Part shown: in pieces, positions 40,514 through 55,944 of the stretch
Layout: the number at the start of each line of letters is the position of its first letter
How positions within the stretch are numbered: the stretch's first letter is position 1
DNA from: Demequina maris
GTDB lineage: Bacteria; Actinomycetota; Actinomycetes; Actinomycetales; Demequinaceae
Assembly: GCF_000971155.1 (NCBI RefSeq)
Contig: NZ_BBLX01000004.1
Coordinates: forward strand, 62,001 to 126,000
DNA length: 64,000 bases
Direction: 5' to 3'
Program-made: the position numbers and the translations under genes
The notes under the pieces: model-generated
What the model was told of the DNA's origin: nothing
Databases searched by the model: none
What the model saw: only the letters and a program-made list of their open reading frames with translations

Positions 40514-43291
40514 TCAGACCGCGGCGAGCGCCGCGTCCAGCTCCTCCAGGGTGTGCGGCGGGACGCCGAACAGCACGTCCTGCAGCGCGCTGCCCTCGGT
40601 CCACGAGGTGCGCGCCGCGAAGCCGGCCGCGTAGCCCTCGCTGAACCCGCGCAGCGTCGCCATGAGCACCGCGAAGGCCTCCGGGTCGTCCGCGATCGCC
40701 GCCAGCGGCGTGGCGAGCGAGTACGGTCCGGCAGGCGCCGCCGGGGCGGGAAGCGTGCCGCGGAAGGCGTGCGCGCCGGACCCGACCTCGACCGGCGCGT
40801 CGCCCCACGGCAGCACGACCGTCGCGGTCGCGTTCGGCGGCACGACCGCCTCGACGACGACCTCGTCGCCCTCGCGCCGCCACGCGGACGATGCGGTGCC
40901 GAGCGGCGTCTCCTGGGTCGAGGACGCGTGGTCGAATCCCGCGACGGGCGTGGGCGCGATCGTGAGGCGCGCGCCGCCGGGCGTCGCGAGCGACAGGCCC
41001 GCGAGCGACCGGTGGAGCCAGTCCGCCACGGCGCCGAGCGCGTAGTGGTTGAAGCTCGTCATCTCGCCCGGGTTGATCGAGCCGTCCGGGAGCATCGAGT
41101 CCCACCGCTCCCAGATCGTGGTGGCGCCCAGCGTGACGGGGTAGAGCCACGACGGGCAGTCGGTCTGGAGCAGCAGGCGCGCGGCGGCGTCGGCGTGGCC
41201 GGTCGCGGCGAGCGCGCCCAGGATCAGCGGCGTGCCGACGAAGCCCGTGCTGATCCGGTAGCGCGTGGCGCGGACCCGCTCGGCGAGGCGCGCGCCCAGC
41301 GCGTCCCGCAGCCCGGGGTCGGTGACGAGGTCGAAGCCGATCGCCAGCGCGTACGCGGTGGGCGCGTCGGACATCATGCGCCCGGCGGGGGTGACGTATG
41401 CGGCGCGGAAGGCCGCGGCGACCTCCTCCGCGTGGAGCGCGTAGGCGGCGGCCGTCGCATCGTCCCCGAGCACGGCGGCGGCCTGCGAGACGATGCGCGC
41501 GGAGCGGGCGACGTACGCGGTCGCGACGATGTCGCGCGACACCTTGGCGGCGCCGGGCTGGTCGGCCGGGGCGTCGGGGTCGAGCCAGTCGCCGAACTGC
41601 ATCGAGCCCTCCCACAGGCGCCTCTCGCCGGCCTGGGCGAGCAGGACGTCGGCCCACGCGCGCATGCTCGGCAGCTGGTCCGCGAGGACCTCGCGGTCGC
41701 CGTAGCGGCGGTAGAGCTCCCACGGGACCACGGTGGCGGCGTCGCCCCACGCGGCGGCGGGGCGCGCGTGGCCGCGGAGCGCGTCGGGCACCACCATCGG
41801 CACGACGCCGGCGTGCGCCTCCTGCTCGCGCGCGAGGTCGACGAGCCAGTCCGCGAGGAACGCGTCGCAGTCGTGCAGCGTCGCGGCGGTGGGGGAGAAC
41901 ACCTGGATGTCGCCGGTCCAGCCGAGGCGCTCGTCGCGCTGCGGGCAGTCCGTGGGGACGGACAGGAAGTTGCCGCGCATGCCCCACACGACGTTCTCAT
42001 GCAGGCGGTTCACCAGCGGGTGCGAGCTGTCGAAGCGGGCGGTGCGGGCCATGTCGCTGTGGAGCACCCGCGCGGTGAACGCCGCCGGGTCGAGCTCGCC
42101 GGGCCAGCCCGTCACCTCGACGTAGCGGAAGCCGTGGAACGTGAACTCGGGCTCGAGCGCCTCGGCGCCCGTGCCGGCGAGCGTGAACGTGTCGGTCTGG
42201 ACCGCGGCGCGCAGCGGCCGCATGCCCATCTCGCCGTGCTCGAGGACCTCGGCGTGACGCAGCGTGATCACGGCGCCCGCGGGGCCGTCGACGATCGCCC
42301 GGACCCGGCCGACGAGGTTCTGGCCGAAGTCGAGCACCGTGGCGCCCGACGGGGTGGTGATCACCTCGACGACGGCGACCTCCTCGGTGACCCGCACCGG
42401 GGGAGCGAGGCGCGGCTCGGGCGCGAGGGCGACCTCCTCGACCGCGACGGGCGCCCAGCCGTCGGTCGCGATGCCGGGCTCATCCCAGCCCTCGACCGCA
42501 CGTCGCAGGTCGACCGTCTCGCCCGCGTAGATGCTCGACTCCGTGATGGGGCCGTCGCCGCGCGCGAGCCAGTCGGGCCCGGTGGCGACGGTGCGCTCGG
42601 TACCGTCGGCGAAGCGCATCCACAGCTGCGCCGCGTAGGACGGCTGCTCGCCGTACACGCGCTGCGGGCGGCCGAAGAAGCCGTAGCCCTCGGTGCGCCA
42701 CGCCCCGGCGAGCACGACGCCGATCGTGTTCGCGCCCGCGCGGAGCAGGCCGGTCACGTCGGTGCTGTCGAGCTGGATCCGCTTGTCGTACGCGCTCCAG
42801 CCGGGGGCGAGCACGCGGTCGTCGGTGCGCGTCCCGTTGATGCTGGTCGCGTGGGCGCCGATCGCGCTCGCGAAGAGCACGGCCTCGACGGGGGCCTCGG
42901 GCAGGTCGAAGGCGTGGCGCAGCAGCGCCGGCTGGGCCACGCGATCGGGATCCGCGAGGCCGACGAACGCGGCCTCCCACGCGCCCGCGCCGAGGAAGCC
43001 CGCGCGCACCTCGAGCGGGGCGCTCCACCCGGTCTCGACCCCCGTGGACGATGCGACGCGCACCGTGAGCGTGCGCCGCTCGCCCGGGGCGAGCGGCGCG
43101 AAGGGCCAGGCCACCGCGACGGCGTCGGAGCCCACGAGGCGGTGCACCGCGCCGGTGCCGTCGGCGAGCTCGGCCCAGGCCTGGATCCAGCCGGGCGCGT
43201 CGGTCGTGACGCGCCAGCCGAGGGTGGGCGTCGCGGTGGTCGCGACGCCGTCCGGGTGGCGGGTGAGGCGGAGGGAGGCGGTGGGCTGCAT
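40514..43291 (-). CDS. GH78 alpha-L-rhamnosidase
   Basis: 925 residues, multidomain as usual for GH78. N-terminal Fn3-like and beta-sandwich domains (GWSAYDKRIQLDSTDVT, YAAQLWMRFADG) are followed by the (alpha/alpha)6 barrel with PTDCPQRDERLGWTGDIQVF (catalytic Asp/Glu region) and GATTIWERWDSM (catalytic Glu), then a C-terminal sandwich. No signal peptide, so it removes rhamnose from imported glycosides in the cytoplasm. The ATG lies 33 nt from an operator copy shared with the transporter promoter across the TetR gene, so it belongs to the same regulon. Confidence 0.94.
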   Translation of the reverse strand: MQPTASLRLTRHPDGVATTATPTLGWRVTTDAPGWIQAWAELADGTGAVHRLVGSDAVAVAWPFAPLAPGERRTLTVRVASSTGVETGWSAPLEVRAGFLGAGAWEAAFVGLADPDRVAQPALLRHAFDLPEAPVEAVLFASAIGAHATSINGTRTDDRVLAPGWSAYDKRIQLDSTDVTGLLRAGANTIGVVLAGAWRTEGYGFFGRPQRVYGEQPSYAAQLWMRFADGTERTVATGPDWLARGDGPITESSIYAGETVDLRRAVEGWDEPGIATDGWAPVAVEEVALAPEPRLAPPVRVTEEVAVVEVITTPSGATVLDFGQNLVGRVRAIVDGPAGAVITLRHAEVLEHGEMGMRPLRAAVQTDTFTLAGTGAEALEPEFTFHGFRYVEVTGWPGELDPAAFTARVLHSDMARTARFDSSHPLVNRLHENVVWGMRGNFLSVPTDCPQRDERLGWTGDIQVFSPTAATLHDCDAFLADWLVDLAREQEAHAGVVPMVVPDALRGHARPAAAWGDAATVVPWELYRRYGDREVLADQLPSMRAWADVLLAQAGERRLWEGSMQFGDWLDPDAPADQPGAAKVSRDIVATAYVARSARIVSQAAAVLGDDATAAAYALHAEEVAAAFRAAYVTPAGRMMSDAPTAYALAIGFDLVTDPGLRDALGARLAERVRATRYRISTGFVGTPLILGALAATGHADAAARLLLQTDCPSWLYPVTLGATTIWERWDSMLPDGSINPGEMTSFNHYALGAVADWLHRSLAGLSLATPGGARLTIAPTPVAGFDHASSTQETPLGTASSAWRREGDEVVVEAVVPPNATATVVLPWGDAPVEVGSGAHAFRGTLPAPAAPAGPYSLATPLAAIADDPEAFAVLMATLRGFSEGYAAGFAARTSWTEGSALQDVLFGVPPHTLEELDAALAAV

Positions 43292-43355: not shown

Positions 43356-43976
43356 TCAGGCGCCGCGGACGGGTGCCTCGTCGAGCCGCGCGAGCGGTAC
43401 GGTGAGGTAGTTCTCGAAGTTGCCGCGCACGATGGTCTCCATGTCGACCTCGACGCCCTGCAGCCACAGCAGCTGCAGGCCCTCCGCCATCGCCGTGGTC
43501 TCGATCGCCGCGGTGCGCGGGTCGACACCCTCGCGCAGGAGCCCGCGGTCCCGGATCTCCTCGAACGCGCGGGTCGTGCCCTCGACGACGAACCCGAAAC
43601 GCCGCGAGATGTACGCGTGGGCCGGATGGTCCGGTGCGGAGGACTCGGCGGCGAGGATCGAATAGAGGCGAATCAGCCCTGGTACGGCCTTGTTTCGCCG
43701 CGCGATCTCCAGGAGTCCGCGCAGGAACTCGACGTCGTGGCGTCCGGACAGGATGTCGAGCGCGAGCTGGTCGCGGCGCTCCATCACCGCCTCGAGCAAC
43801 GCGAGCTTGGACCCGAAGTGGTGCAGCAGCCCGGGCTGCGTCATCCCGACCGTGCGGGCGATCTCGTTGACCGATGCGGCCGTGTACCCCTGGCGCGAGA
43901 ACACGTCGAAGGCGGCGTCGAGGATCTCCTCCCGACGCTTCGCCGACTTCCTGTAGGCGCCCCGTTGCGTTGCCAT
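43356..43976 (-). CDS. TetR-family transcriptional regulator
   Basis: 206 residues. N-terminal HTH: EEILDAAFDVFSRQGYTAAS, then VNEIARTVGMTQPGLLHHFGSK; helical ligand-binding C-terminal domain. It is flanked by two near-identical operator copies, one before the GH78 gene and one in its own promoter/divergent transporter promoter, so it very likely represses all three. The ATG is 6 nt after the -10 box TAACCT (43988-43983). The inducer is probably the imported glycoside or a breakdown product. Confidence 0.93.
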   Translation of the reverse strand: MATQRGAYRKSAKRREEILDAAFDVFSRQGYTAASVNEIARTVGMTQPGLLHHFGSKLALLEAVMERRDQLALDILSGRHDVEFLRGLLEIARRNKAVPGLIRLYSILAAESSAPDHPAHAYISRRFGFVVEGTTRAFEEIRDRGLLREGVDPRTAAIETTAMAEGLQLLWLQGVEVDMETIVRGNFENYLTVPLARLDEAPVRGA

Positions 43977-44084: not shown

Positions 44085-45638
44085 ATGCTTCGCACTACAC
44101 GGCTCGCCGCACTGGCAGGTGCCGCCGCCATCACCCTCACCGCCTGCTCGTCCACGGGCGCCGACGACTCCCCCAGCGCGGGCGCGAGCGGCGACTCGGC
44201 CGGCGCCGTCGTCGAGGGCGGGGATCTCCGCTACGGCTCGGTCGTCGACATCTCGACCTGGATCGCCGCGGACGCGGCCTGGGGCAACGAGGCCACCTAC
44301 TACATGGCGGTCTACGACAGCCTGCTCCGGACGTCCGCGACGAACGAGATCGAGCCGGGTCTCGCCGAGGCGTGGGAGTACAACGACGACCTCACCGAGC
44401 TCACCCTCGACATCCGCGACGGCGTGACGTTCACCGACGGCACCGCGCTCGACGCGCAGGTCGTCGTCGACAACCTCAACCGCTTCCGCGAGGGCGCCTC
44501 GCCCGACCGCGGCCTTCTCGACGCGGTCGCCGACGTCACCGCGGCGGACGAGGACACGGTCGTCATCACGCTCTCCGCGCCCGACCCGGCGCTCGAGATC
44601 AACCTCAGCCTGCAGGCCGGCCTCATCGCCTCGCCCTCGACGTTCGACGCCGAGGACGCGCAGACCACCCCGGTCGGCACGGGCCCGTACGTGCTCGACA
44701 CGGCCGCGTCGACGATCGGCGCGACCTACGTGTTCACGCCGAACGAGGACTACTGGGCCCCCGAGGACCAGCACTTCGACTCGCTCACCATCAACTACTA
44801 CGCGGACGCCTCGGCGCTGCTCAACGCGCTGCGCGACAACCAGGTGGACGTGGCGAACCTCAACTCGGTCACGCAGATCCCGGACGCCGAGTCCGCCGGC
44901 TACACCATCAACTCGGAGCCGGTGAACTGGAAGGGCATCATCCTCGCGGACCGCTGGGGCATGAACAACGAGGCGCTCGGCGACGTCCGGGTGCGCCAGG
45001 CGATCAACTACGCGCTCGACCGCGAGGGCCTGCTCCAGGGCCTCGAGGCCGGCTACGGCGAGGTCACCACGCAGATCTTCAACACCGAGGGCGACGCGTT
45101 CGACGCCGCGCTCGACGACGCCTACCCGTACGACCCCGAGAAGGCGAAGGCGCTGCTCGCCGAGGCCGGCTACGCCGACGGCGTCACCATCGTGATGCCG
45201 CAGACGGGCTTCGTCCCCGCCTCGGAGTACGAGCTCATCGCGGGCGTGCTGGCCGAGTCGAACATCTTCATCGAGTACGAGCAGGCCGGTGAGAGCTTCT
45301 TCGGCGACCTGCTGGGCGGCACCTGGTCGGCCTTCAACTTCGGCCTCAACCAGGAGCCCCTCGCGTGGCAGACCTACAACCAGGCGATCGCGCCCGGGGC
45401 CGCGTGGAACGTCTTCCACCAGGCCGACGAGACGGTCGAGGGCCTCGCGGCCCGCATCCGCCTCGGCGGTGAGGACGGCGCCGCGGCCGCGCAGGAGCTC
45501 AACGCCTACATGGTCGAGGAGGCGTGGTTCGCCCCCTTCTACCGCGTGCTCGGCGTGATCGTCACCGCGGACGGCTTCGCCGTGACGAACAAGTCCGGCC
45601 AGGCCGTGGCCAACCTCTGGGACATCACCCCCGCGTAA
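44085..45638 (+). CDS. oligopeptide/oligosaccharide ABC transporter substrate-binding lipoprotein
   Basis: 517 residues, SBP family 5 (DppA/OppA type). Lipobox LTAC (Cys21). Seen: IEPGLAEAWEYNDDLTELTL near residue 90, DGTALDAQVVVDNLNRF, VGTGPYVLD, VRQAINYALDREGLLQGL and YDPEKAKALLAEAGY. Family-5 proteins bind peptides but also xyloglucan, cello- and other oligosaccharides; the glycosidases downstream favour an oligosaccharide or glycoside. AAGGAGG precedes the ATG. It is the first gene of the operon. Confidence 0.9.
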   Translation: MLRTTRLAALAGAAAITLTACSSTGADDSPSAGASGDSAGAVVEGGDLRYGSVVDISTWIAADAAWGNEATYYMAVYDSLLRTSATNEIEPGLAEAWEYNDDLTELTLDIRDGVTFTDGTALDAQVVVDNLNRFREGASPDRGLLDAVADVTAADEDTVVITLSAPDPALEINLSLQAGLIASPSTFDAEDAQTTPVGTGPYVLDTAASTIGATYVFTPNEDYWAPEDQHFDSLTINYYADASALLNALRDNQVDVANLNSVTQIPDAESAGYTINSEPVNWKGIILADRWGMNNEALGDVRVRQAINYALDREGLLQGLEAGYGEVTTQIFNTEGDAFDAALDDAYPYDPEKAKALLAEAGYADGVTIVMPQTGFVPASEYELIAGVLAESNIFIEYEQAGESFFGDLLGGTWSAFNFGLNQEPLAWQTYNQAIAPGAAWNVFHQADETVEGLAARIRLGGEDGAAAAQELNAYMVEEAWFAPFYRVLGVIVTADGFAVTNKSGQAVANLWDITPA

Positions 45639-45701: not shown

Positions 45702-46643
45702 ATGCTCAGCTTCGTCGGCAAGCGCCTCGCGACAGGCGTCGGCCTCATCGTCACCCTCGCGGTGCTCACCTTCTTCTTCCTCCAGCTCGGCAACAGCGAC
45801 ACCGCGCAGCGGATCGCCGGCCAGCAGGCCGGACCCGAGGCGGTCGCGGTCGTGGAGGAGCGGCTCGGCCTCGACCGGCCCGCGATCGTCCAGTTCCTCG
45901 ACTGGGCCGGCTCGGCGCTCACCGGCGACCTCGGCCGCTCGTGGTTCAGCGGCCAGGAGGTCACCGAGGCCGTCACCACCCGCATGTCCGTGACCGTGAC
46001 GCTCGCCGTCGGGTCGGTGCTCCTCACCGCCGTCATCGGCATCACGCTCGGCGCGCTCGCGGCCACCCGCCGCGGCTGGCTCGACCGCGCGGTCCAGATC
46101 CTGGCCGTCATCGGCCAGGCGATCCCCGGCTTCCTGCTCGCGATGGCCCTCGTCCTGGTCTTCGCGATCGAGCTCGACTGGTTCCCGGCGACGGGCTATA
46201 CGCGCTTCTCGGAGTCGCCCTCCGAGTGGCTCCTCTCGATCGCGCTGCCCGTGATCGCGCTGACCCTCGGCTCGATCGGCGGCGTCGCGCAGCAGGTGCG
46301 CGGGGCGATGATCGACGCGTTCGAGCGCGACTACGTCCGCACGCTGCGCAGCCGCGGGCTCCCGCGCCGCAGCGTCGTCTACCAGCACGTCCTGCGCAAC
46401 GCCGCCGGGCCCGCCCTCACCGTGCTGGGCCTCCAGTTCGTCATCCTGCTCGGCGGTGCCGTCATCGTCGAGCAGCTGTTCTCCATCCCCGGCCTCGGCC
46501 CGCTGGCGCTGTCGAGCACGTCCCAGGGCGACATCCCCGTCGTCATGGGCATCGTCGTCGTCACCGGCGTCATCGTCGTCGTCGTCAACACCCTGGTCGA
46601 TGTCATCCAGGCCTGGGTCAACCCGAAGGTGCGTGTCTCATGA
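45702..46643 (+). CDS. ABC transporter permease, DppB type
   Basis: 313 residues, six predicted membrane helices, starting FVGKRLATGVGLIVTLAVLTF (20-residue hydrophobic helix after the first Arg). It has the DppB signature loop VRGAMIDAFERDYVRTLRSRGLPRRSVVYQH near residue 205 (the EAA-like ATPase contact, cited as YVRTLRSRGLPRR) and GGAVIVEQLFSIPGLG. It pairs with the permease part of the next gene. Its stop overlaps that gene's ATG (ATGA). Confidence 0.92.
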   Translation: MLSFVGKRLATGVGLIVTLAVLTFFFLQLGNSDTAQRIAGQQAGPEAVAVVEERLGLDRPAIVQFLDWAGSALTGDLGRSWFSGQEVTEAVTTRMSVTVTLAVGSVLLTAVIGITLGALAATRRGWLDRAVQILAVIGQAIPGFLLAMALVLVFAIELDWFPATGYTRFSESPSEWLLSIALPVIALTLGSIGGVAQQVRGAMIDAFERDYVRTLRSRGLPRRSVVYQHVLRNAAGPALTVLGLQFVILLGGAVIVEQLFSIPGLGPLALSSTSQGDIPVVMGIVVVTGVIVVVVNTLVDVIQAWVNPKVRVS

Positions 46644-48436
46644 GCACCCCGACCACCACCGCATCGTCCGCCACCGGCGCCCCTCGCCGCGGCGTCCTCC
46701 GTCGCCTGCTCGTCCACCCGCTCGGCGGCGTCTCGATGATCGTCCTCGCCGTGATCGTGGTCGTCGGCGTGATCGCGCCGTGGATCGCGCCGCACGACCC
46801 GACCGAGACGAGCCTCAGCATGATCTTCGCGGAGCCGGGCGGGGAGTACCTCCTCGGCGGCGACTCGGCTGGGCGCGACATCTGGTCGCGGCTGCTCATC
46901 GCGACCGCGTTCTCGCTCGCGGGCGGCCTGCTCGTCATGGCCGTCGCCTCCCTCGTGGGGGTCACGGCCGGCCTCATCGCCGGCTACTACGGCGGGTTCG
47001 TCGACGCGGTGGGCGCGTGGTTCACCGCGCTGACCATGTCGCTGCCGTCGATCATCGTGCTGATCGCCGCGCGCGCCGTGATCGGCCCCTCGATGTGGTG
47101 GACCATGGCGATCTTCGGCATCTTCATCTCGCCCGTCTACTACCGCGTCGTCTACAACTCGGTTCGCGCCGTCCGGGGCGAGCTCTACGTGGACGCGGCC
47201 CGCACCTCGGGTCTCGGCGACGGCCGCATCATCGGCCGCCACGTGCTGCTCGCGGTCCGCGCCCCCGTGATCCTGCTGATGTCGGGCGTGATCGCCGCCG
47301 GCATCGGCATGCAGGCCGGCTTCGACTTCCTCGGCCTGGGCGACCCCACGATCCCGACGTGGGGGCAGATGCTCAACGAGGGCTTCTACAACATCACCCG
47401 CTCCGCGACCCTCGTGCTGTGGCCCGCGCTCGCGCTCGGCCTCACCACCGTGGCGCTCACGCTGCTCGGCACCGCGCTGCGCGACGAGCTCGAGGGCACG
47501 TCGGAGCGTCGCCGGTCGCGCAAGGCGCCGGCGTGGTCGCTCGACGAGGACGTCCCCGCGGTGGTCGACCACGGCGGCGAGGACGCCTCGGAGCCGCTCC
47601 TCGCGGTCCGCGACCTCGCGGTCGCCTACCAGGCGGGCGACGGCTACGCCACGGTGGTCAAGGGCGGTCGTCTGACCGTGCGCCGCGGCGAGACCCACGG
47701 CCTCATCGGCGAGTCGGGCTCGGGCAAGACGCAGACAGCGTTCTCGGTGCTCGGCCTGCTGCCCAAGGGCGGCAAGGTGATGGCCGGCTCGATCGTGTTC
47801 GACGGCCAGGAGCTCACCGGGCTGAGCGACGCGCAGATGAACCGCCTCCGCGGCACCCGCATCGCCTACGTGCCCCAGGAGCCCATGTCGAACCTCGACC
47901 CGTCGTTCACGGTGGGCCACCAGCTCACGGAGCCGCTCGTGAAGGCCGCGGGGCTGTCGCGCAAGGAGGCGAAGGAGCGCGCGCTGGCGCTGCTCGCCCG
48001 GGTGGGCATCCCCGACCCCGAGCGCGCGTTCGGCTCGTACCCGCACCAGCTCTCGGGCGGCATGGCGCAGCGCGTGCTCATCGCGGGCGCGGTCGCGTCC
48101 CACCCCGACCTGCTCATCGCCGACGAGCCCACCACCGCGCTCGACGTCACGGTGCAGGCCGAGGTCCTCGACCTGCTCCGGGACCTCCAGGAGGAGCTCG
48201 GGATGGCGATCCTCATCGTCACCCACAACTTCGGCGTCGTGGCCGACATCTGCGACCGCGTCTCCGTCATGCAGAAGGGGGTCATGGTCGAGACGGGCGC
48301 CACCGCGGACGTGTTCGACGACCCCCGCCACCCCTACACCCGCGCGCTGTTCGAGGCGATCCCGAAGGGGGCGCCGCGCGCGCCCCTCGCGGGCGTCACG
48401 AGCGCCGGCCTGCTCGGGACGGGGGCCCTGAAGTGA
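46640..48436 (+). CDS. fused DppC-type permease and DppD-type ATPase
   Basis: 598 residues joining two transporter parts in one chain. Residues 1 to about 290 are a DppC permease (GGDSAGRDIWSRL, VRAVRGELYVDAARTSGLGD, GFDFLGLGDPTIPTWGQML). A charged linker (about 295-325) leads to a DppD ATPase with Walker A GESGSGKT (near 357), signature LSGGMAQR, Walker B LLIADEPTTALD and the C-terminal HPYTRALFEAIP. The ATG overlaps the dppB stop. Such C-D fusions occur in actinobacteria and fix the stoichiometry of membrane and motor subunits. Confidence 0.92.
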   Translation: MSTPTTTASSATGAPRRGVLRRLLVHPLGGVSMIVLAVIVVVGVIAPWIAPHDPTETSLSMIFAEPGGEYLLGGDSAGRDIWSRLLIATAFSLAGGLLVMAVASLVGVTAGLIAGYYGGFVDAVGAWFTALTMSLPSIIVLIAARAVIGPSMWWTMAIFGIFISPVYYRVVYNSVRAVRGELYVDAARTSGLGDGRIIGRHVLLAVRAPVILLMSGVIAAGIGMQAGFDFLGLGDPTIPTWGQMLNEGFYNITRSATLVLWPALALGLTTVALTLLGTALRDELEGTSERRRSRKAPAWSLDEDVPAVVDHGGEDASEPLLAVRDLAVAYQAGDGYATVVKGGRLTVRRGETHGLIGESGSGKTQTAFSVLGLLPKGGKVMAGSIVFDGQELTGLSDAQMNRLRGTRIAYVPQEPMSNLDPSFTVGHQLTEPLVKAAGLSRKEAKERALALLARVGIPDPERAFGSYPHQLSGGMAQRVLIAGAVASHPDLLIADEPTTALDVTVQAEVLDLLRDLQEELGMAILIVTHNFGVVADICDRVSVMQKGVMVETGATADVFDDPRHPYTRALFEAIPKGAPRAPLAGVTSAGLLGTGALK

Positions 48437-48447
48437 AGGACACCACC

Positions 48448-49308
48448 ATGACCGACTCCCTGCTCACCGTCGACGGGCTCCAGGTCGAGTACCCCGGCCG
48501 CGGGTTCCGCGCGCAGCCGTTCCGCGCCGTCAAGGGCGTGAGCTTCGACATCAGGCCCGGCGAGACCGTGGGCCTCGTGGGCGAGTCGGGCTCGGGCAAG
48601 ACCACCATCGGGCGTGCGATCCTCGGCCTCGCGCCGGTGTCGGCCGGCACGGTGACGTTCAACGGCGAGGACATCTCGCACCCCACGAAGCAGCGCCGCC
48701 GCGAGCTCACGCGCGACATCCAGGTCGTCTACCAGGACCCCTACTCGTCGCTCAACCCGTCGCTCACGATCGGCGACTCCCTCACCGAGCCGATGATCGT
48801 CCGCAAGACCCCCAAGCGGGAGGCGCAGGCGCGCGTGCGCGAGCTCCTCGACATGGTCAGGCTGCCCTCCGACGCCGCGGACCGCATGCCGCGCGAGTTC
48901 TCGGGCGGCCAGCGCCAGCGCGTGGCGATCGCGCGGGCCCTCGCGCTCGACCCGACGCTCATCATCTGCGACGAGCCGGTCTCCGCGCTCGACCTGTCCA
49001 CCCAGGCCCGCGTGCTCGAGCTGTTCCTGGAGATCCAGGAGCGCACGGGCGTCGCCTACCTGTTCATCTCCCACGACCTCGCGGTCGTGCGCGAGATGTC
49101 CCACCGCGTGGCCGTGCTGCTGCACGGCGAGCTCGTCGAGTGGGGCGACGGCGACACCGTCACCTCGCAGCCGGAGCACCCGTACACGCAGCGGCTGCTG
49201 CTCGCGTCGCCGGTCCCGGACCCGGTCGCGCAGGAGCAGCGGCGGGCCGACCGGCTGCGCCTCAAGCAGCTCCACGCCGACCAGGACCTCCAGGCCGGCG
49301 CGGCCTGA
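48448..49308 (+). CDS. ABC transporter ATPase, DppF type
   Basis: 286 residues; second motor ATPase of the importer. Walker A GESGSGKTT, Q-loop VVYQDPYSSLNPSLT, signature FSGGQRQRVAIARAL, Walker B LIICDEPVSALD, switch FISHDLAVV, and the OppF-type C-terminus HPYTQRLLLASPVPDP. The ATG at 48448 has AAGGA upstream; an in-frame GTG at 48433 overlaps the previous stop but gives a non-family N-terminus. The glycosidase genes follow at once. Confidence 0.93.
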   Translation: MTDSLLTVDGLQVEYPGRGFRAQPFRAVKGVSFDIRPGETVGLVGESGSGKTTIGRAILGLAPVSAGTVTFNGEDISHPTKQRRRELTRDIQVVYQDPYSSLNPSLTIGDSLTEPMIVRKTPKREAQARVRELLDMVRLPSDAADRMPREFSGGQRQRVAIARALALDPTLIICDEPVSALDLSTQARVLELFLEIQERTGVAYLFISHDLAVVREMSHRVAVLLHGELVEWGDGDTVTSQPEHPYTQRLLLASPVPDPVAQEQRRADRLRLKQLHADQDLQAGAA

Positions 49309-49363: not shown

Positions 49364-50602
49364 ATGACCGCCTCGACCCCCGCATCGTTCCTCTGGGGCG
49401 TCGCCACCGCCGGCCACCAGACCGACGGCGACGACACCACGTCGGACACCTCGTTCCTCGAGCTCACGCAGCCGAGCGTGTTCGCCGAACCCTCGGGGAG
49501 CGCCTGCCGCAGCTGGGAGCTGTGGGAGAGGGACCTCGACCTCGCCGTGGACATGGGCCTCAACGCGTACCGCTTCTCCGTGGAGTGGTGCCGCGTCGAG
49601 CCCGAGGAGGGGAGCGTCGACGAGACCGCGCTCGCGCACTACGAGGACGTCATCGACGGCTGCCTCGCCCGCGGGCTCGCGCCGATCGTGACCTTCAGCC
49701 ACTTCACCGCGCCTCACTGGTTCGCGTGCCGCGGCTCGTGGCTCGCGGACGATGCGGCGGAGCGCTTCGCGCGCTTCTGCACCCTGGTGATGGAGCGCAT
49801 CGGCGACCGGATCGCGCTCGCCGTGACCCTCAACGAGCCCAACCTGCAGCGCCAGCTCGCGGGCGGGTTCCTGCCGCCGCAGGTGTGGGAGGCGCACCGC
49901 GCGAACCTCCACGCCGCCTCGGCGGCCGCGGGCGTGGAGCGGTACCGGGCGGGCAACGTCCAGGTGCTCGAGGAGCTGGACGTGTTCGAGGAAGGCTTCG
50001 AGCGCGCCCACGTCGCGGCGCGGGCCGCGATCAAGGCCGTGCGCCCCGACCTGCCGGTGGGGCTGTCGCTCGCCGTCGCCGACGACGTCGCCGCCCCCGG
50101 CGGCGAGGCCGAGCGCGACCGCGTGCGCGAGGAGTGCTACGGCCGCTGGGTCCGCCTGTGCGCGGACGACGACTTCATCGGCGTGCAGAACTACGAGCGC
50201 ATCGTCCACGGTCCCGACGGCCGCGCGGGGGCGGAGGGCGGGCACACCCCGCCGGAGCCGGACTCGCTCGGGGGCGCGGTCCGCTACATCCACGAGGCGT
50301 CCGGCGCGCCCATCCTCGTGAGCGAGCACGGCATCAACACGCAGGACGATGCGGAGCGGTGCGCCTTCCTGCCGGCGGCCCTCGCGAGTCTCGACCGCGC
50401 GATCGCGGACGGCGTGCCGGTGCTCGGCTACTGCCACTGGACGCTGCTCGACAACTACGAGTGGATCTTCGCGTACGGGCCCAGGTTCGGGCTGCACGAG
50501 GTGGACCGCGACACCTTCGCGCGCACCCCCAAGCCCTCCGCGGGCGTGTACGCCGCCGAGATCCGCCGCCGCACCCCGGTGGCGACCGGGGCGGGCCGAT
50601 GA
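49364..50602 (+). CDS. GH1-family beta-glycosidase, short variant
   Basis: 412 residues, shorter than usual GH1 (about 450-480). Seen: WGVATAGHQTDGDD at the N-terminus, acid/base TLNEPN (Glu158), nucleophile in VSEHGIN (Glu321) where most GH1 have TENG, and LLDNYEWIFAYGPRFGL. No signal peptide, so cytoplasmic. Glucose-ring contacts at the N-terminus are kept (GHQTDG). The altered nucleophile loop and shorter barrel suggest an atypical substrate. The ATG has GAAGGAGA upstream; the stop overlaps the next ATG. Confidence 0.88.
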   Translation: MTASTPASFLWGVATAGHQTDGDDTTSDTSFLELTQPSVFAEPSGSACRSWELWERDLDLAVDMGLNAYRFSVEWCRVEPEEGSVDETALAHYEDVIDGCLARGLAPIVTFSHFTAPHWFACRGSWLADDAAERFARFCTLVMERIGDRIALAVTLNEPNLQRQLAGGFLPPQVWEAHRANLHAASAAAGVERYRAGNVQVLEELDVFEEGFERAHVAARAAIKAVRPDLPVGLSLAVADDVAAPGGEAERDRVREECYGRWVRLCADDDFIGVQNYERIVHGPDGRAGAEGGHTPPEPDSLGGAVRYIHEASGAPILVSEHGINTQDDAERCAFLPAALASLDRAIADGVPVLGYCHWTLLDNYEWIFAYGPRFGLHEVDRDTFARTPKPSAGVYAAEIRRRTPVATGAGR

Positions 50603-53028
50603 CCTTGGCCCCGCCGGTCGCCGCCTCGGCGGCGCTGTTCGACCTCGACGGCGTGATCGTCGACACCGCCGTCCACCACTTCGCCGCCTGGAGGGAGACC
50701 GCCGCGGAGCTGGGCTTCTCCCTCGCGGACGAGGACGAGGAGCGGCTCAAGGGCGTGGGTCGCATGGGCGCGCTGCGCATCGTCCTCGAGATCGGCGGCG
50801 TCGAGGTGGACGGGGCCACGGCCGCGCGCCTCGCCGACGAGAAGAACGCCCGCTACGTCGCCGCGATCGCGTCGATCACGCCGGCGGACATGCTCCCCGG
50901 CGCGCGTGAGGTCCTCGAGGACCTGCGCGCCCGCGGCGTGCGTACGGCGCTGGGCTCGGCCAGCCGCAACGCCCCGCTCATCTTGGAGCGCCTGGGCATC
51001 ACGGGCCTGTTCGACGCGATCGTCGACGGGTCGGTGGTGACGGAGGCGAAGCCCCACCCGCGGGTCTTCCTCGCCGGCGCCGAGGCGCTCGGCGTCGACC
51101 CCGACGCGTGCCTCGTCTTCGAGGACGCCATCGCCGGCGTCCAGGCGGCCAAGGCGGCCGGCATGACGGCCGTCGGCATCGGCGACCCCGCCGTGCTGGC
51201 CGAGGCCGATGCCGTCATCCCTGGGCTCCACGCCGTCGACGCGCTCTCCGCGCGCGGCATCACCTTCGCGGGTACGCTCGCGGCACGTCTCGAGGAGGAG
51301 ACCATGACCACGACCGCGACGGGCGACGGCGTGCGGCTCGATGCCGCACCCTTCCACCTGGACGATGCGGCGCAGGCCTGGGTGCGGGACACCCTCGCCG
51401 GCCTCACGCTCGAGCAGAAGCTGGGCCAGCTGTTCTTCCTCATGGCCAACGCCCCCGAGCAGGTCGACGCGGAGATCGCCCTCGCCGAGCCCGGTGGCTG
51501 GATGCGCCGCCCCGCGCCGGTCGACGAGGCCGTGAGCCTCAACCGCCACATCCAGGCCGCCTCCTCGATCCCGGCGCTCATCGCGGGCAACCTCGAGAAC
51601 GGCGCCGACGGCGCGAGCTTCATGGCGACGCAGGTCGGGACCCCGCTCCAGGCCGCCGCGACGGGCGACGACTCGTGCGCGTACCGGATGGGCCAGGTCG
51701 CCGCCGTCGAGGGCCGCGCGCTCGGCGTGACCTGGGACTTCGCGCCGATCGTCGACATCCAGTCCAACGTCCGCAACCCCATCGTCCTCAACCGCGGCTT
51801 CGGCTCGGACGCCGACCGCGTGCGCCGCATGGGCGTGGAGTTCGTGCGCGGGCTGCAGGACCACGGCATGGCGGCCTCGGTCAAGCACTGGCCCGGCGAC
51901 GGCGTCGACGACCGCGACCAGCACCTGCTGACGTCGGTCAACACGTTGAGCGTGGAGGAGTGGGAGTCCACCTTCGGCGAGGCGTACCGCGCGTCGATCG
52001 AGGCGGGCGCGCTGTCGGTCATGGCGGCGCACATCGCGCTGCCGGCGTACTCGCGCGCGCTGCGCCCGGGCATCGCGGACGAGGACATCCTGCCCGCGTC
52101 GCTCGCCCCCGAGCTCACGACCGAGCTGCTGCGCGAGCGGATGGGCTTCAACGGCGTGGTCATCACCGACGCCTCGCTCATGGGTGGGCTCCTCATGCGG
52201 ATGCCGCGCCGCGAGCTGGTCCCCGCGACGGTGGCCGCCGGCTGCGACATGTTCCTGTTCACCCCGGACTACGCCGAGGATCTCGCGCACATGCGCGCCG
52301 GCGTCGAGTCGGGCGTCATCAGCGCCGCACGGCTCGACGAGGCGGTGACCCGCGTGCTCGCCCTCAAGGCCGCTCTCGGCCTGCACCGCGCATCGTCCCC
52401 GGAGGAGCTGGTGCCGGGGCTCGACGGGATCGACACCGGGACCCACCGCGCGTGGGCCCGCGCGCAGGCCGAGGCCGCGGTCACGCTCGTCAAGGACAAG
52501 GAGGCGGGGCTCCTTCCGCTGTCGCCGGAGCGGACGCCCCGCGTGCTCGTGTACTCGCTGCGCGGCTTCTTGTCCGGCACCGGTCCCGCGGAGTCGTTCT
52601 GCGAGGCGCTGCGCTCGCGCGGCTTCGCGGCGACGCTGTTCGAGGACGGCCCGCCCGGGTCGACGATGTTCAAGCGCGTGGGCGTGGACGGCGGCGTCAA
52701 CGGCGCGGACCTGCTCGACCACTACGACGCGGTGATCTACCTGGTCGACATCCAGCCGCGCTCCAACGTCACGAGCGCCCGGATCGAGTGGGCGCCGTTC
52801 ACCGCGGGCAACCTGCCGCGCCACGTCACCGAGATCCCGACGCTGGTGGTGTCGCTCGGCAGCCCGTTCCACCTCCAGGACGTGCCGTTCATCCGCACCT
52901 ACGTCAACGCCTACGCGAACAACCCGGAGACGGTCGAGGCGGTCGCGGCCGCGCTCTCCGGCGAGATCGCCTTCCGCGGCGAGAGCCCGGTCGACGCGTT
53001 CGCGGGGTACGAGGACGCGCGCTGGTGA
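50599..53028 (+). CDS. beta-phosphoglucomutase fused in frame to GH3 beta-glycoside phosphorylase-type enzyme
   Basis: A single open frame of 809 codons. Residues 1 to about 228 are a HAD beta-phosphoglucomutase: FDLDGVIVD (Asp15, Asp17), cap motif ERLKGVGRM (Lys51), GSASRN, KPHP (Lys151), FEDAIAGVQAAK (Glu175, Asp176). From residue 236 follows a 574-residue GH3 enzyme with KHWPGDG (429-435), the dyad D-x-H (Asp440, His442) and nucleophile VITDASLMGG (Asp524). The D-x-H signature marks the GH3 subfamily shown for Cellulomonas fimi Nag3 to be retaining phosphorylases yielding beta-hexose-1-phosphate, the mutase's substrate. No stop separates the parts, but AGGAGG lies 5 nt before the in-frame ATG at 51304, so a separate GH3 protein may also be made. 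Confidence 0.9.
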   Translation: MTLAPPVAASAALFDLDGVIVDTAVHHFAAWRETAAELGFSLADEDEERLKGVGRMGALRIVLEIGGVEVDGATAARLADEKNARYVAAIASITPADMLPGAREVLEDLRARGVRTALGSASRNAPLILERLGITGLFDAIVDGSVVTEAKPHPRVFLAGAEALGVDPDACLVFEDAIAGVQAAKAAGMTAVGIGDPAVLAEADAVIPGLHAVDALSARGITFAGTLAARLEEETMTTTATGDGVRLDAAPFHLDDAAQAWVRDTLAGLTLEQKLGQLFFLMANAPEQVDAEIALAEPGGWMRRPAPVDEAVSLNRHIQAASSIPALIAGNLENGADGASFMATQVGTPLQAAATGDDSCAYRMGQVAAVEGRALGVTWDFAPIVDIQSNVRNPIVLNRGFGSDADRVRRMGVEFVRGLQDHGMAASVKHWPGDGVDDRDQHLLTSVNTLSVEEWESTFGEAYRASIEAGALSVMAAHIALPAYSRALRPGIADEDILPASLAPELTTELLRERMGFNGVVITDASLMGGLLMRMPRRELVPATVAAGCDMFLFTPDYAEDLAHMRAGVESGVISAARLDEAVTRVLALKAALGLHRASSPEELVPGLDGIDTGTHRAWARAQAEAAVTLVKDKEAGLLPLSPERTPRVLVYSLRGFLSGTGPAESFCEALRSRGFAATLFEDGPPGSTMFKRVGVDGGVNGADLLDHYDAVIYLVDIQPRSNVTSARIEWAPFTAGNLPRHVTEIPTLVVSLGSPFHLQDVPFIRTYVNAYANNPETVEAVAAALSGEIAFRGESPVDAFAGYEDARW
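51293..51306 (+). promoter_or_regulatory. internal ribosome-binding site and start within the mutase-GH3 ORF
   Basis: AGGAGG at 51293-51298, 5 nt before ATG 51304 in the same frame as the upstream mutase. It encodes the linker LEEETM. Initiation here would give a free 574-residue GH3 protein in addition to the fusion. Confidence 0.55.
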
Positions 53029-54482
53029 CCGGCGCGGGGGAGCCGGGCGGCGACCGGGTGCGCGTGGTCGTCACCACGGACCCGGAGCTCGACGACCTCA
53101 ACTCGATGCTGCGGCTGGTGCTCTACAGCAACGAGATCGAGCTGGTCGGGCTCGTCTACAGCTCCAGCATGTTCCACTGGGCCGGCGACCCGGCGCGGGG
53201 CGTCGCGCCGTTCCGGTGGCCCCCCGCCGGAGCGCGGGGCCACATCGATCAGGCCATCGACGCCTACGCGCGCGTCCACGACGCGCTGCGGGTGCACGAT
53301 GCGCGCTACCCGGCGCCGGGCGCCCTGCGGGCGCTCGTGCGCGAGGGCAACGTCGCGACCGAGGGCGACACCCGCGACGCGACGCCCGGATCGGACCTCA
53401 TCGCGGACCTGTTGACCGACGACGAGCCCGGCACCCTGGTGCTGCAGGCCTGGGGCGGGCTCAACACGATCGCCCGCGCGCTCATGTCGGTCGAGGAGCG
53501 CCACGCCGGCACCCCGGGCTGGGAGGCGCTCCGTACCCGCATCATGGCGCGCACCGTCCTCACCAGCTGGGGGGAGCAGGACTCGACGTTCGCGGACTAC
53601 ATCCGACCGCGCTGGCCCGAGCTGGAGCTGCGCCAGGTCGCGACCGTCGTGTGGGGCTACGGCGCGCGTCAGGTGACGCCGCCCGCGACGCACCGCTTCT
53701 ACTCCTCCGCGTGGACGCGGGAGCACGTGTCCCGGGTCGGCCCGATCGGGGCGGCGTACCGCGTCTGGGGCGACGGCCTCCAGATGGCGGACGGCTTCGA
53801 CAAGGAGGACTACTTCGGCCTGCGCGGCGTCGGTCGCGAGGAGCTCGAGGCGCGCGGCTACCAGGTGTTCTTCCCGGTGGAGGAGCCAGGCGCGTTCATC
53901 TCGGAGGGCGACTCCTCCAACTTCGCGCTGCACGTCGCCAACGGCCTGAGGAGCTGGGAGCACCCGACGTGGGGCGGCTGGGGCGGACGGCAGGTGCCCG
54001 ATGCCGACGACCCGCACCGGTGGGGCTCCGACGGGTTCAGCATGGACTTCTCGATGCCGCCGGTCGACTGGGGGGACGCCGCGCGCTGGGTCCCCGCCTT
54101 CCAGAACGACTTCGCGGCGCGCCTCCGGTGGAGCGTCACGGACGCGTACGCGGACGCGAACCACGCCCCGCGCATCGAGGTCACGACGGGGCTCGACGTC
54201 ACGGCCGCCGCAGGCGAGCGCGTGGTGATCCGCTGGCGGGTCGAGGACCCGGACGGGGACGCCGTCTCCGTGGAGGCATGGGAGTACCGCGAGGCCGGCA
54301 CGTGCCCCTCGGCGGCGACGCTCGCGCGCGGCGACGATGCGGAGGTCACCGTGCACGTCCCGGCCGACGCGGCGCCGGGACAGACTGTCCACGTGATCCT
54401 CGAGGCGACCGACCGGGGTGAGCCGCCGCTCACCGCGTACGCCCGCATCGTCCTCACGATCGCCGACGAGACGGAGGGCTGA
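53025..54482 (+). CDS. DUF1593/nucleoside-hydrolase-like protein
   Basis: 485 residues. The N-terminal part has a nucleoside-hydrolase-like Asp cluster (VVVTTDPELDDLNSMLRLVLYS, key Asp in DPELDD), then LVLQAWGGLNTIARAL and a middle part with WGGWGGRQVP. The C-terminal about 100 residues form a beta-sandwich (VVIRWRVEDPDGDAVSVEAWEY). This is the DUF1593 layout, whose members are often secreted and annotated as cellulose-binding, but no signal peptide is seen here. The GTG overlaps the preceding stop (GTGA). Its biochemical role is unknown; the setting implies action on a glycoside or N-/C-glycosyl bond. Confidence 0.8.
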   Translation: MTGAGEPGGDRVRVVVTTDPELDDLNSMLRLVLYSNEIELVGLVYSSSMFHWAGDPARGVAPFRWPPAGARGHIDQAIDAYARVHDALRVHDARYPAPGALRALVREGNVATEGDTRDATPGSDLIADLLTDDEPGTLVLQAWGGLNTIARALMSVEERHAGTPGWEALRTRIMARTVLTSWGEQDSTFADYIRPRWPELELRQVATVVWGYGARQVTPPATHRFYSSAWTREHVSRVGPIGAAYRVWGDGLQMADGFDKEDYFGLRGVGREELEARGYQVFFPVEEPGAFISEGDSSNFALHVANGLRSWEHPTWGGWGGRQVPDADDPHRWGSDGFSMDFSMPPVDWGDAARWVPAFQNDFAARLRWSVTDAYADANHAPRIEVTTGLDVTAAAGERVVIRWRVEDPDGDAVSVEAWEYREAGTCPSAATLARGDDAEVTVHVPADAAPGQTVHVILEATDRGEPPLTAYARIVLTIADETEG

Positions 54483-54486
54483 ACCG

Positions 54487-55944
54487 GTGACCATGCCGAT
54501 CCTGCCGGGCTTCCACCCGGACCCGTCGATCTGCCGCGCGGGCGACGCGTACTACGTCGCGACGTCGTCGTTCGAGTACGTACCGGGCGTGCCGATCCAC
54601 CGGTCGACCGACCTGGTGACCTGGGAGCTCGTCGGGCACGCGATCGCGGACGCGGACGTCGTCGCGGCGCCGTCGGGAGCCGCCGGGGCCAGCTCGGGCA
54701 TCTTCGCCCCCACGCTGCGCCACCGTGACGGCCGGTTCTGGCTCGCGACCACGTCGATCCGCCGCATCGGCGAGGGGCAGCTGATCACCCACGCCCCGGA
54801 CCCGGCCGGGCCATGGTCGGCGCCGGCCTTCGTGCCGGGCACGATCGGGATCGACCCCGACCTCGCGTGGGACGACGACGGCACGTGCCTGCTCACGTGG
54901 CGCGGCTTCGGCCCTCCCGGCATCCACCAGGTGCCGATCGACCCGGAGTCCGGCGCGCGCCTCGGCGAGGAGACCGTGATCTGGGAGGGGACCGGGCTCG
55001 CGGATACCGAGGGCCCGCACCTGTACCGCCGCGGCGGCTGGTGGTACCTCATGGTCGCCGAGGGAGGCACGCACCTCGGTCACGGCGTCTCCGTCGCCCG
55101 GTCGCGCAGCCCGCGCGGGCCCTTCGAGGCGCACCCCGGCAACCCGATCCTCAGCCACCGCAGCACCGAGCATCCGGTCCAGGCGGTCGGCCACGCGGAC
55201 ATGGTCGAGCGGGCCGACGGCACCTGGGCGATGGTGCACCTCGGCATCCGGCAGGCGGGCTCGCACCCGCGCTTCCACGTGCTCGGCCGCGAGACCTTCG
55301 TGGCCGGCGTCGACTGGGTCGACGACTGGCCCGCCGTCGTCGAGGACCGTTCCGACCTGCCCGCGCGGGACCGTGCGTGGGCGGACGCCTTCGACGCCCC
55401 CGCGCTCGATGCCCGGTGGGTCGCCCCGTCGGCGGACCCCGCATCGTTCGCCCGGGTCGGGGACGGGCTCGTGCTGGACGAGGGGCGCGCCGCCGCGGAG
55501 CCGGAGCAGGGCCGCGTGCTGTGCGCGCGCATCGTCGACTGCGGCTGGGACGCGAGCGTCGCGGTCGTCGACGGCGACGCGTGCCTGTCCGTGCGGATCG
55601 ACGCGTCCCACTGGTACGGCGTCGAGCTGGTGGGCGGGACCGCCCGGGCCCGCGCGGTCAGCGCCCCCTTCGACCAGGTGCTCGGGGAGGCGCCCGCGGC
55701 GGCGGGGGACCGGCTCGCGATCCGCGTCCGCCCGTCCGAGCCGGCGCTGGGCGAGAGCGCCGGGCCCGATGCCGTGGGGCTGGGTGTCGAGCGCGACGGC
55801 GCCTTCGTCGCGCTCGCCGAGCTCGACGGGCGCCACCTGTCGACGGAGGTGGCCGGCGGGTTCACCGGGCGCATGCTCGGGGTCGAGGCGCTCGGCGGTC
55901 CCGCGCGCGTCTCCGAGGCCCGATACCTCCCGGGGCTTGCCTGA
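54487..55944 (+). CDS. GH43-family beta-xylosidase/alpha-L-arabinofuranosidase
   Basis: 485 residues. The five-blade propeller starts with LPGFHPDPSICRAGDAYYVA (catalytic base Asp in HPDPS); IGIDPDLAWDDDG holds the pKa-modulating Asp and ADTEGPHLY the acid Glu, so all three catalytic residues are present. A C-terminal beta-sandwich (about residues 300-485) closes the active site as in GH43 beta-xylosidases. No signal peptide. The GTG at 54487 has GGAGGG 8 nt upstream; ATG 54493 is an alternative. Last gene of the operon; it would remove xylose or arabinose from the imported glycoside. Confidence 0.9.
   Translation: MTMPILPGFHPDPSICRAGDAYYVATSSFEYVPGVPIHRSTDLVTWELVGHAIADADVVAAPSGAAGASSGIFAPTLRHRDGRFWLATTSIRRIGEGQLITHAPDPAGPWSAPAFVPGTIGIDPDLAWDDDGTCLLTWRGFGPPGIHQVPIDPESGARLGEETVIWEGTGLADTEGPHLYRRGGWWYLMVAEGGTHLGHGVSVARSRSPRGPFEAHPGNPILSHRSTEHPVQAVGHADMVERADGTWAMVHLGIRQAGSHPRFHVLGRETFVAGVDWVDDWPAVVEDRSDLPARDRAWADAFDAPALDARWVAPSADPASFARVGDGLVLDEGRAAAEPEQGRVLCARIVDCGWDASVAVVDGDACLSVRIDASHWYGVELVGGTARARAVSAPFDQVLGEAPAAAGDRLAIRVRPSEPALGESAGPDAVGLGVERDGAFVALAELDGRHLSTEVAGGFTGRMLGVEALGGPARVSEARYLPGLA

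What the first reader, a model, noticed from the sequence alone, without database searches (positions are those of the whole stretch)
50599..53028. In-frame fusion of beta-phosphoglucomutase with a GH3 enzyme of the retaining phosphorylase type
One ORF of 809 codons joins a complete beta-PGM (Asp15/Asp17, cap ERLKGVGRM, FEDAIAG) to a complete GH3 enzyme with the KHWPGDG...D-x-H dyad and Asp524. Established: GH3 enzymes with this His-Asp dyad (C. fimi Nag3) act as retaining phosphorylases releasing beta-hexose-1-phosphate, which is exactly what beta-PGM converts to hexose-6-phosphate. Inference: a self-contained machine that phosphorolyses a beta-glucoside and isomerises the product, saving ATP. 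I know of no described enzyme with this architecture. An internal AGGAGG/ATG at 51304 may also give free GH3, so one gene could make two products.
Basis: partly seen in the sequence, partly recalled or inferred. Interest (0 to 1): 0.87.

Follow-up and report, generated by a model that had tools for sequence, protein, structure and literature searches.

The report
Two-enzyme fusion: glucoside phosphorylase plus mutase
A bacterium of the genus Demequina makes one protein that probably cuts beta-glucosides with phosphate and then turns the released sugar phosphate into the cell's standard fuel, saving energy; elsewhere these two steps were found as separate neighbouring genes, and here they are joined.

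Summary
The ORF is real: 809 codons at 50599-53028 join a complete beta-phosphoglucomutase (over the TIGR01990 cut-off) to a complete GH3 enzyme closest to BglX/BglP, a described retaining beta-glucoside phosphorylase (39% identity, TM 0.94). It is no artefact: of 44 Demequina genomes searched, 12 carry this pair, 10 in one frame and 2 as genes overlapping by ATGA. No fusion was found outside Demequina, but a bPGM gene lies within 300 nt of such a GH3 in 33 of 72 named loci. Best reading: a bifunctional enzyme that phosphorolyses a beta-glucoside and isomerises the product to glucose-6-phosphate, beside an importer and a rhamnosidase. Corrections: the His/Asp dyad does not prove phosphorolysis (NagZ-type LpqI is reported as a hydrolase); bPGM-family domains are also fused to GH65; and in 16 of 17 relatives with only an unfused GH3 of this type no bPGM passes the cut-off. 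The internal start at 51304 has the strongest Shine-Dalgarno match of 46 in-frame ATG/GTG codons and is kept in 6 of 10 fused genes. Activity is untested. New variant of a known kind.

The parts
50599..53028 (+). fused bPGM-GH3 open reading frame, 809 aa
   Evidence: whole-length homologues in 9 other Demequina genomes
50599..51276 (+). beta-phosphoglucomutase domain (residues 1-226); start overlaps the GH1 stop as ATGA
   Evidence: TIGR01990 residues 11-195, 208 bits; 1lvh best solved match E 3.9e-49
50641..50649 (+). Asp15 to Asp17, the catalytic Asp pair of the mutase domain (roles recalled)
   Evidence: aligned to FDLDGV of the bPGM 1lvh; invariant in 10 fused
51277..51324 (+). inter-domain linker (residues 227-242), low confidence in the model
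   Evidence: pLDDT under 50 at 227-242; variable in sequence and length
51293..51306 (+). internal AGGAGG-AGACC-ATG: Shine-Dalgarno and start codon for a possible free GH3 of 574 aa
   Evidence: strongest duplex (-11.8) of 46 in-frame ATG/GTG codons; identical in 6 of 10 fused species
51331..53025 (+). GH3 BglX-like domain (residues 245-809)
   Evidence: PF00933; 5vqd E 5.8e-125, Foldseek TMt 0.94
51916..51924 (+). Asp440-Gln441-His442, the His/Asp acid/base dyad (role by homology)
   Evidence: RDQH aligned to BglX RDQH; D440 and H442 invariant in 10 fused
52168..52170 (+). Asp524, GH3 catalytic nucleophile (role by homology)
   Evidence: TDA aligned to BglX TDA; invariant in 10 fused
40514..43291 (-). 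alpha-L-rhamnosidase (GH78-type), divergent neighbour
   Evidence: Bac_rhamnosid domains; present in 9 of 11 fetched relatives' loci
43356..43976 (-). TetR-type regulator
   Evidence: PF00440; present in 11 of 11 fetched relatives' loci
44085..45638 (+). family 5 solute-binding protein of an ABC importer
   Evidence: PF00496; present in 11 of 11 fetched relatives' loci
45702..46643 (+). ABC permease 1
   Evidence: PF00528
46640..48436 (+). ABC permease 2 joined in frame to an ATPase
   Evidence: PF00528, OppC_N and PF00005 in one ORF
48448..49308 (+). ABC ATPase 2 (start set by the first ATG)
   Evidence: PF00005; the codon at 48439 is not a start codon
49364..50602 (+). GH1 beta-glucosidase-like protein
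   Evidence: PF00232; beside the pair in 5 of 11 fetched relatives
53025..54482 (+). Sde182 / nucleoside-hydrolase-like protein (GTG start overlaps the GH3 stop)
   Evidence: PF07632, PF21027; in 2 of 11 fetched relatives
54493..55944 (+). GH43 glycosidase
   Evidence: PF04616; in 5 of 11 fetched relatives

Best explanation
The gene makes a cytosolic bifunctional enzyme. The C-terminal GH3 half uses Asp524 as nucleophile and the Asp440/His442 dyad, lets phosphate instead of water resolve the glycosyl-enzyme, and releases beta-glucose-1-phosphate from an imported beta-glucoside. The N-terminal beta-phosphoglucomutase, tethered by a short flexible linker, converts beta-glucose-1-phosphate to glucose-6-phosphate, so no ATP is needed to phosphorylate that glucose. 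The neighbouring importer and alpha-L-rhamnosidase suggest that the natural substrate is a rhamnose-capped beta-glucoside, trimmed by the rhamnosidase first. The fusion arose from an adjacent or ATGA-overlapping bPGM-GH3 gene pair, and the old GH3 start may still be used in this species. Shown here: the anatomy, the conservation, the family likeness, the neighbourhood. Inferred: both activities, the cytosolic site, the substrate, the hand-over of product, the origin, the second product.
For: Frame and domains. GH3 half closest to BglX by sequence (E 5.8e-125) and by predicted fold (39% identity, TMt 0.94); the review PMC8950772 (passages) lists 5VQD as BglP, a retaining GH3 beta-glucoside phosphorylase. 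The catalytic positions of both halves are invariant in 10 fused proteins. Fusion in 10 of the 12 genomes with the pair, out of 44 of the genus searched. Outside Demequina, a same-strand bPGM lies within 300 nt of the GH3 in 33 of 72 named loci and within 3500 nt in 49 of 72; 46 of those 49 had no stop in the matched stretch and were scanned, and 46 of 46 match TIGR01990 at E 1e-20 or better. For comparison 0 of 17 NagZ-like GH3 loci had a bPGM, although those loci hold at most 1.5 kb on each side. Parallel fusions of a bPGM-family HAD to GH65: 6 of 6 long frames examined. TetR and the binding protein beside the pair in 11 of 11 fetched relatives and the rhamnosidase in 9 of 11. Two well-modelled domains on a low-confidence linker.
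Against: No activity data. Eighteen unfused GH3 genes with the same PGDG...RDQH motif (4 in the genus, 14 in other families of the order) were checked: only 2 of 18 have a bPGM in the fetched locus, and of the 17 genomes other than G020 that carry them only G372 has a bPGM over the cut-off (two more have weaker matches). So the motif does not by itself imply this pathway. Nineteen of 72 named loci have no bPGM hit in the held flanks. A NagZ-type GH3 behaved as a plain hydrolase (PMC6572805, passages). Two Demequina species keep the pair unfused, so fusion is not essential. pTM 0.70 with a low-confidence linker gives no support for a fixed channel. GH1 stands beside the pair in only 5 of 11 fetched relatives. 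The primary BglX and Nag3 papers were not held.
Confidence: 0.8

Rival explanations
1. The GH3 half is a hydrolase (or a beta-N-acetylglucosaminidase) and the bPGM half serves another source of beta-glucose-1-phosphate, such as a GH65 enzyme elsewhere in the genome; the fusion is an accident of overlapping genes.
For: A NagZ-type GH3 was found to hydrolyse without a phosphate effect. The own genome holds two GH65 matches. Two species keep the genes apart. Related GH3 genes often lack a bPGM partner.
Against: Closest solved match is a described beta-glucoside phosphorylase. It carries PGDG...RDQH and an Asn-Leu-Glu motif like BglX, not PGHG...DSH. bPGM adjacency recurs outside the genus. The joined frame is open in 10 species down to 60% identity.
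Confidence: 0.13
2. In this species the gene yields two products: free GH3 from the start at 51304, perhaps in excess, besides the fused polypeptide. (Not exclusive with the best explanation.)
For: Strongest Shine-Dalgarno duplex of 46 in-frame ATG/GTG codons, and stronger than that of the bPGM start (-11.8 against -7.0). Identical 14-base stretch in 6 of 10 fused species. The split orthologues have their GH3 ATG at the corresponding place.
Against: Four of 10 fused species have no Met there. Codon identity at the site is uninformative (20 of 21 conserved Glu columns are GAG in all six). AGGAGG-N4-8-ATG also occurs 4 other times in the window. There is no proteomic evidence.
Confidence: 0.35
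3. The joined frame is an assembly or sequencing artefact.
For: At the junction the split G025 differs from the window in spacer length by a net two bases, so a small error could mimic fusion.
Against: Ten genomes show the joined frame, four of them with a different linker that has no internal Met.
Confidence: 0.01

Closest known systems
BglX/BglP, GH3 beta-glucoside phosphorylase (PDB 5vqd, 5vqe)
   Same: whole GH3 half: length, fold, TDA nucleophile, RDQH dyad, NLE motif
   Different: the solved BglX chain is 573 residues with no mutase domain
Lactococcus lactis-type beta-phosphoglucomutase (PDB 1lvh; TIGR01990)
   Same: catalytic positions aligned, over the family cut-off
   Different: fused to a GH3; GVGR in the cap in all 10 Demequina fusions where the Ser of GVSR is invariant in 46 other bPGMs
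bPGM-family HAD to GH65 fusions in actinobacterial genomes (L169-L174)
   Same: mutase-type domain at the N terminus of an enzyme from a family of inverting phosphorylases
   Different: GH65 is an unrelated family acting on alpha-glucosides and also contains hydrolases (PMC8537180, start of abstract); only 2 of the 6 HAD domains pass the TIGR01990 cut-off
Nag3 of Cellulomonas fimi and NagZ/LpqI-type GH3
   Same: GH3 fold; His acid/base (for Nag3)
   Different: 16 of 17 NagZ-like comparison loci carry PGHG...DSH; LpqI reported as hydrolase

Membership tests
beta-phosphoglucomutase (TIGR01990) | score over the curated cut-off | tested here: met
   208 bits against 189.4, residues 11-195
beta-phosphoglucomutase (TIGR01990) | nucleophile and acid/base Asp, hinge Thr/His, cap Arg, core Lys and Glu-Asp | tested here: met
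   Asp15, Asp17, Thr23, His27, Arg55, Lys151, Glu175, Asp176 align to 1lvh and are invariant in 10 fused proteins; roles recalled
beta-phosphoglucomutase (TIGR01990) | converts beta-glucose-1-phosphate to glucose-6-phosphate | not testable with these tools
   needs an assay
GH3, BglX-type beta-glucoside phosphorylase | whole-length homology to BglX including the C-terminal domain | tested here: met
   GH3 half 13-573 to chain 7-566, E 5.8e-125; TMt 0.94
GH3, BglX-type beta-glucoside phosphorylase | Asp nucleophile and His/Asp dyad in place of an acidic acid/base | tested here: met
   Asp524, Asp440, His442; roles and recalled
GH3, BglX-type beta-glucoside phosphorylase | phosphate as acceptor in preference to water | not testable with these tools
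   needs kinetics; primary paper not held
GH3, BglX-type beta-glucoside phosphorylase | linkage to a mutase that uses the product (supporting, not defining) | tested here: inconclusive
   33 of 72 named loci within 300 nt, but 2 of 18 in the order-level set
NagZ-type GH3 N-acetylglucosaminidase | PGHG...DSH loop | tested here: not met
   KHWPGDGVDDRDQH here; PGHG...DSH in 16 of 17 comparison loci, the 17th gave no motif match
bPGM-GH65 bifunctional fusions | GH65 catalytic domain | tested here: not met
   GH3 and no GH65 domain in Pfam

The most novel reading that the evidence does not exclude
A single gene yields two enzymes in a set ratio: a tethered phosphorylase-mutase that passes beta-glucose-1-phosphate from one site to the other, and free phosphorylase from the internal start. 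The Demequina species would show the steps from overlapping genes to fusion with a kept start to fusion with the start lost. In this reading it belongs to an undescribed, widespread ATP-saving route for rhamnose-capped beta-glucosides.
Probability: 0.2. Interest if true: 0.72.

Novelty: new variant of a known kind. Interest (0 to 1): 0.52.

Why it matters
Which GH3 enzymes are phosphorylases is disputed in the papers seen (passages). A GH3 joined to the enzyme that consumes beta-glucose-1-phosphate is strong genomic evidence of phosphorolysis, and gives a clean protein to test: phosphate-dependent glucose-6-phosphate from a beta-glucoside in one pot. The Demequina set also holds both the joined and the overlapping state in one genus, so the step by which two coupled genes become one protein can be compared in close relatives.

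Tried and rejected
Artefact or missed stop: rejected, 10 of 12 pair-bearing genomes are fused.

Fusion elsewhere: searches of 396 order genomes at E 1e-40, 396 phylum genomes at 1e-60 (only the own genome matched), 80 kept loci of 252 in named genomes and plasmids (0 of 75 matching records cover 80% of the query) showed none outside Demequina. These are samples, and one search kept only the best 80. Two of the 80 (L092, L110) begin too near a contig end to show an upstream domain.

Synonymous constraint at the internal start as proof of use: rejected as uninformative. Among columns conserved in the six species, Glu is GAG throughout in 20 of 21 and Thr keeps one codon in 4 of 20.

The motif PGDG...RDQH as a mark of the bPGM route: rejected by the order-level set.

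Age and direction of the fusion: not settled. The GH3 tree needs two changes of state between fused and split, so one fusion with two later splits, or several fusions, would do. The bPGM tree is mostly unresolved (9 of 15 inner branches open), and the bPGM identities conflict with the GH3 identities.

Promoter or terminator inside the frame: no promoter-like site and two terminator-like matches between 50400 and 53200 against 0.3 expected; consensus matches only, not followed.

Paper searches on GH3, bPGM, phosphorylase and fusion or cluster terms listed no description of such a protein in titles or abstract starts. They cover only open-licence PubMed Central text; most listed papers were not opened, and the two primary BglX/Nag3 papers were not held.
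Full report
OBSERVATION. The frame at 50599-53028 is open for 809 codons. Its first part is a beta-phosphoglucomutase: TIGR01990 over cut-off at residues 11-195, best solved match the bPGM 1lvh with E 3.9e-49. Its second part is GH3 (PF00933), best solved match BglX 5vqd with E 5.8e-125 over residues 13-573 of the GH3 half.

IS IT REAL. In the 44 held genomes of the genus, 16 gave a match at 1e-80. Twelve carry the bPGM-GH3 pair. Ten have one open frame over both domains (own, G023, G004, G402, G001, G006, G020, G033, G353, G035), the nine others being 94 to 60% identical to the window protein. Two (G025, G385) have two genes overlapping as GCATGACC. The other four have only one piece (G017, G275 and G011 a GH3 at 40-41%, G028 a bPGM). 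A single error cannot explain ten genomes.

THE JUNCTION. In six fused species (G000, G023, G006, G001, G004, G402) the 14 bases AGGAGGAGACCATG are identical, while residues on both sides vary in kind and number. In the other four (G020, G033, G035, G353) the domains are joined by a linker without Met at that place. In the split G025 the same GAGGAGGAG is followed by a spacer longer by a net two bases, so that the bPGM frame ends in TGA across the GH3 ATG. Of 46 in-frame ATG/GTG codons after the start, 51304 has the best anti-Shine-Dalgarno duplex (-11.8), better than the bPGM start (-7.0), which itself overlaps the GH1 stop. AGGAGG-N4-8-ATG occurs 5 times in the window against 1.08 expected, and 0 of 100 shuffles reached 5; four of the five are elsewhere, so this one could still be chance. 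Codon identity at the site is uninformative. I take an internal start as plausible, not shown.

HISTORY. The GH3 tree puts the ten fused and two split members in one supported group of twelve, with the split members in two different subgroups. Either one fusion and two later splits, or several fusions, would do. The two domains disagree: G006, G020 and G385 have bPGM cores 86-93% identical to the window's but GH3 only 65-67%, whereas G001, G004 and G402 have bPGM 73-77% and GH3 81-82%. Exchange of the bPGM part between lineages, with a break near the junction, is the simplest reading. The bPGM tree itself is mostly unresolved.

CONTEXT. Upstream lie, divergently, an alpha-L-rhamnosidase and a TetR regulator, then an ABC importer with a family 5 binding protein, and a GH1 protein; downstream an Sde182-like protein and GH43. 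In the 11 fetched relatives with the pair, TetR and the binding protein are present in 11, the rhamnosidase in 9, GH1 and GH43 in 5 each, Sde182 in 2. Of the two loci without the rhamnosidase, L036 is cut just beyond TetR and L063 shows other transporter genes there. Permease matches are absent from L034, L035 and L065. So the steady core is rhamnosidase, TetR, binding protein and the pair. No signal-peptide program was run; the cytosolic location is inferred from the lack of an obvious leader and from the chemistry.

OUTSIDE THE GENUS. The scan of named genomes kept 80 of 252 relatives: 6 fused and 2 split, all Demequina, and 72 others (Firmicutes, Chloroflexota, Actinomycetota, Acholeplasmatales by their titles). 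None of the 72 shows a fusion; L092, an 83% identical fragment, and L110 begin too near a contig end to show an upstream domain. A same-strand bPGM lies within 300 nt in 33, within 1000 nt in 1 more, within 3500 nt in 15 more, within 6000 nt in 4 more, and is not found in 19 (some contigs are short). Of the 49 within 3500 nt, 46 were scanned and 46 of 46 match TIGR01990. For comparison, 0 of 17 NagZ-like GH3 loci had one, those loci holding at most 1.5 kb on each side; 34 of 72 against 0 of 17 gives p = 0.00014, with loci that are not independent. A rhamnosidase match is in 19 of the 72 loci. All 80 loci carry KH[FW]PGDG...RD[QH]H.

RESULTS AGAINST. Eighteen unfused GH3 genes with the same PGDG...RDQH motif, found at E under 1e-90 in the order (4 in the genus, 14 in other families), were fetched with wider flanks. 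Only two (L039, L076) have a bPGM in the locus. In the 17 genomes other than G020 that carry them, only G372 has a bPGM over the family cut-off; G209 and G064 have weaker matches. So some members of this GH3 group seem to work without bPGM: as hydrolases, on another sugar, or with another mutase. Also, NagZ-type LpqI showed no phosphate effect, its product ran with GlcNAc, and its authors cite another GH3 reported to lack phosphorylase activity (PMC6572805, passages).

PARALLEL. A bPGM search of 149 phylum genomes listed eight hits besides the window's own in open frames over 1000 codons. I examined six of the eight: all six have an HAD domain followed by GH65, a family described as inverting phosphorylases on alpha-glucosides (PMC3899277, start of abstract), though it also holds hydrolases (PMC8537180, start of abstract). 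Two of the six HAD domains pass the bPGM cut-off. So joining this mutase family to a likely source of beta-glucose-1-phosphate seems to have happened with two unrelated enzyme families. That supports the function and lowers the novelty.

STRUCTURE. The model has mean pLDDT 90.8 and pTM 0.70, with residues 227-242 under 50: two well-modelled domains on what is probably a flexible tether. Foldseek puts 5vqd first (39% identity, TM 0.94 by target length). No fixed channel can be claimed.

MECHANISM. Shown: two complete, conserved domains in one frame. From the literature seen: BglP (5VQD) is a retaining GH3 beta-glucoside phosphorylase said to act on cellulose and cello-oligosaccharides, and the dyad is held to let phosphate enter (PMC8950772, passages). 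Inferred: beta-glucoside plus phosphate gives beta-glucose-1-phosphate, the mutase gives glucose-6-phosphate, one ATP is saved; the rhamnosidase may first remove rhamnose from an imported rhamnosyl-glucoside. A cello-oligosaccharide or aryl glucoside is as open as a rhamnose-capped one.

VERDICT. The architecture seems confined to Demequina in what I searched, and the paper searches listed no description of it. It is a new variant of a known kind: a phosphorylase joined to its mutase.

Noticed in passing
L034, L035, L065 against window 50599-53028: The bPGM and GH3 halves have conflicting relatedness across Demequina species, as if the bPGM part had been exchanged by recombination with a break near the junction.
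   Followed up: partly
46640-48436: A second in-frame fusion in the same cluster: an OppC-type ABC permease joined to an ABC ATPase, matched as one stretch in 8 of the 11 fetched relatives' loci with the pair and absent from the other 3.
   Followed up: no
L042 7933-8580, L044 7079-7744, L045 6474-7118, L080 6788-7435: Stand-alone bPGM genes, 74-79% identical to the window's, lie within some 5 kb of another rhamnosidase gene; in L042 what looks like a different sugar ABC importer (no family search run) stands between them. No GH3 of this group matched in these loci.
   Followed up: partly
G000:C21:181813-184655 (own genome, outside the window): A bPGM-family HAD below the cut-off lies about 1.2 kb upstream of a GH65 core domain in the same genome: perhaps the unfused form of the parallel pairing.
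   Followed up: no
G000 contigs C17 and C19: The genome holds five matches to the window's alpha-L-rhamnosidase, itself included, so rhamnoside use may be a main trade of this bacterium.
   Followed up: no
residue 54 of the fused protein, 50758-50760: The mutase cap motif is GVGR in the 10 fused Demequina proteins where the Ser of GVSR is invariant in 46 of 46 bPGMs from other bacteria.
   Followed up: no
L040, L066-L079: Several genomes of the order carry a GH3 of the same PGDG...RDQH group without any bPGM over cut-off (all but G372 of those 15); what they make is open.
   Followed up: partly
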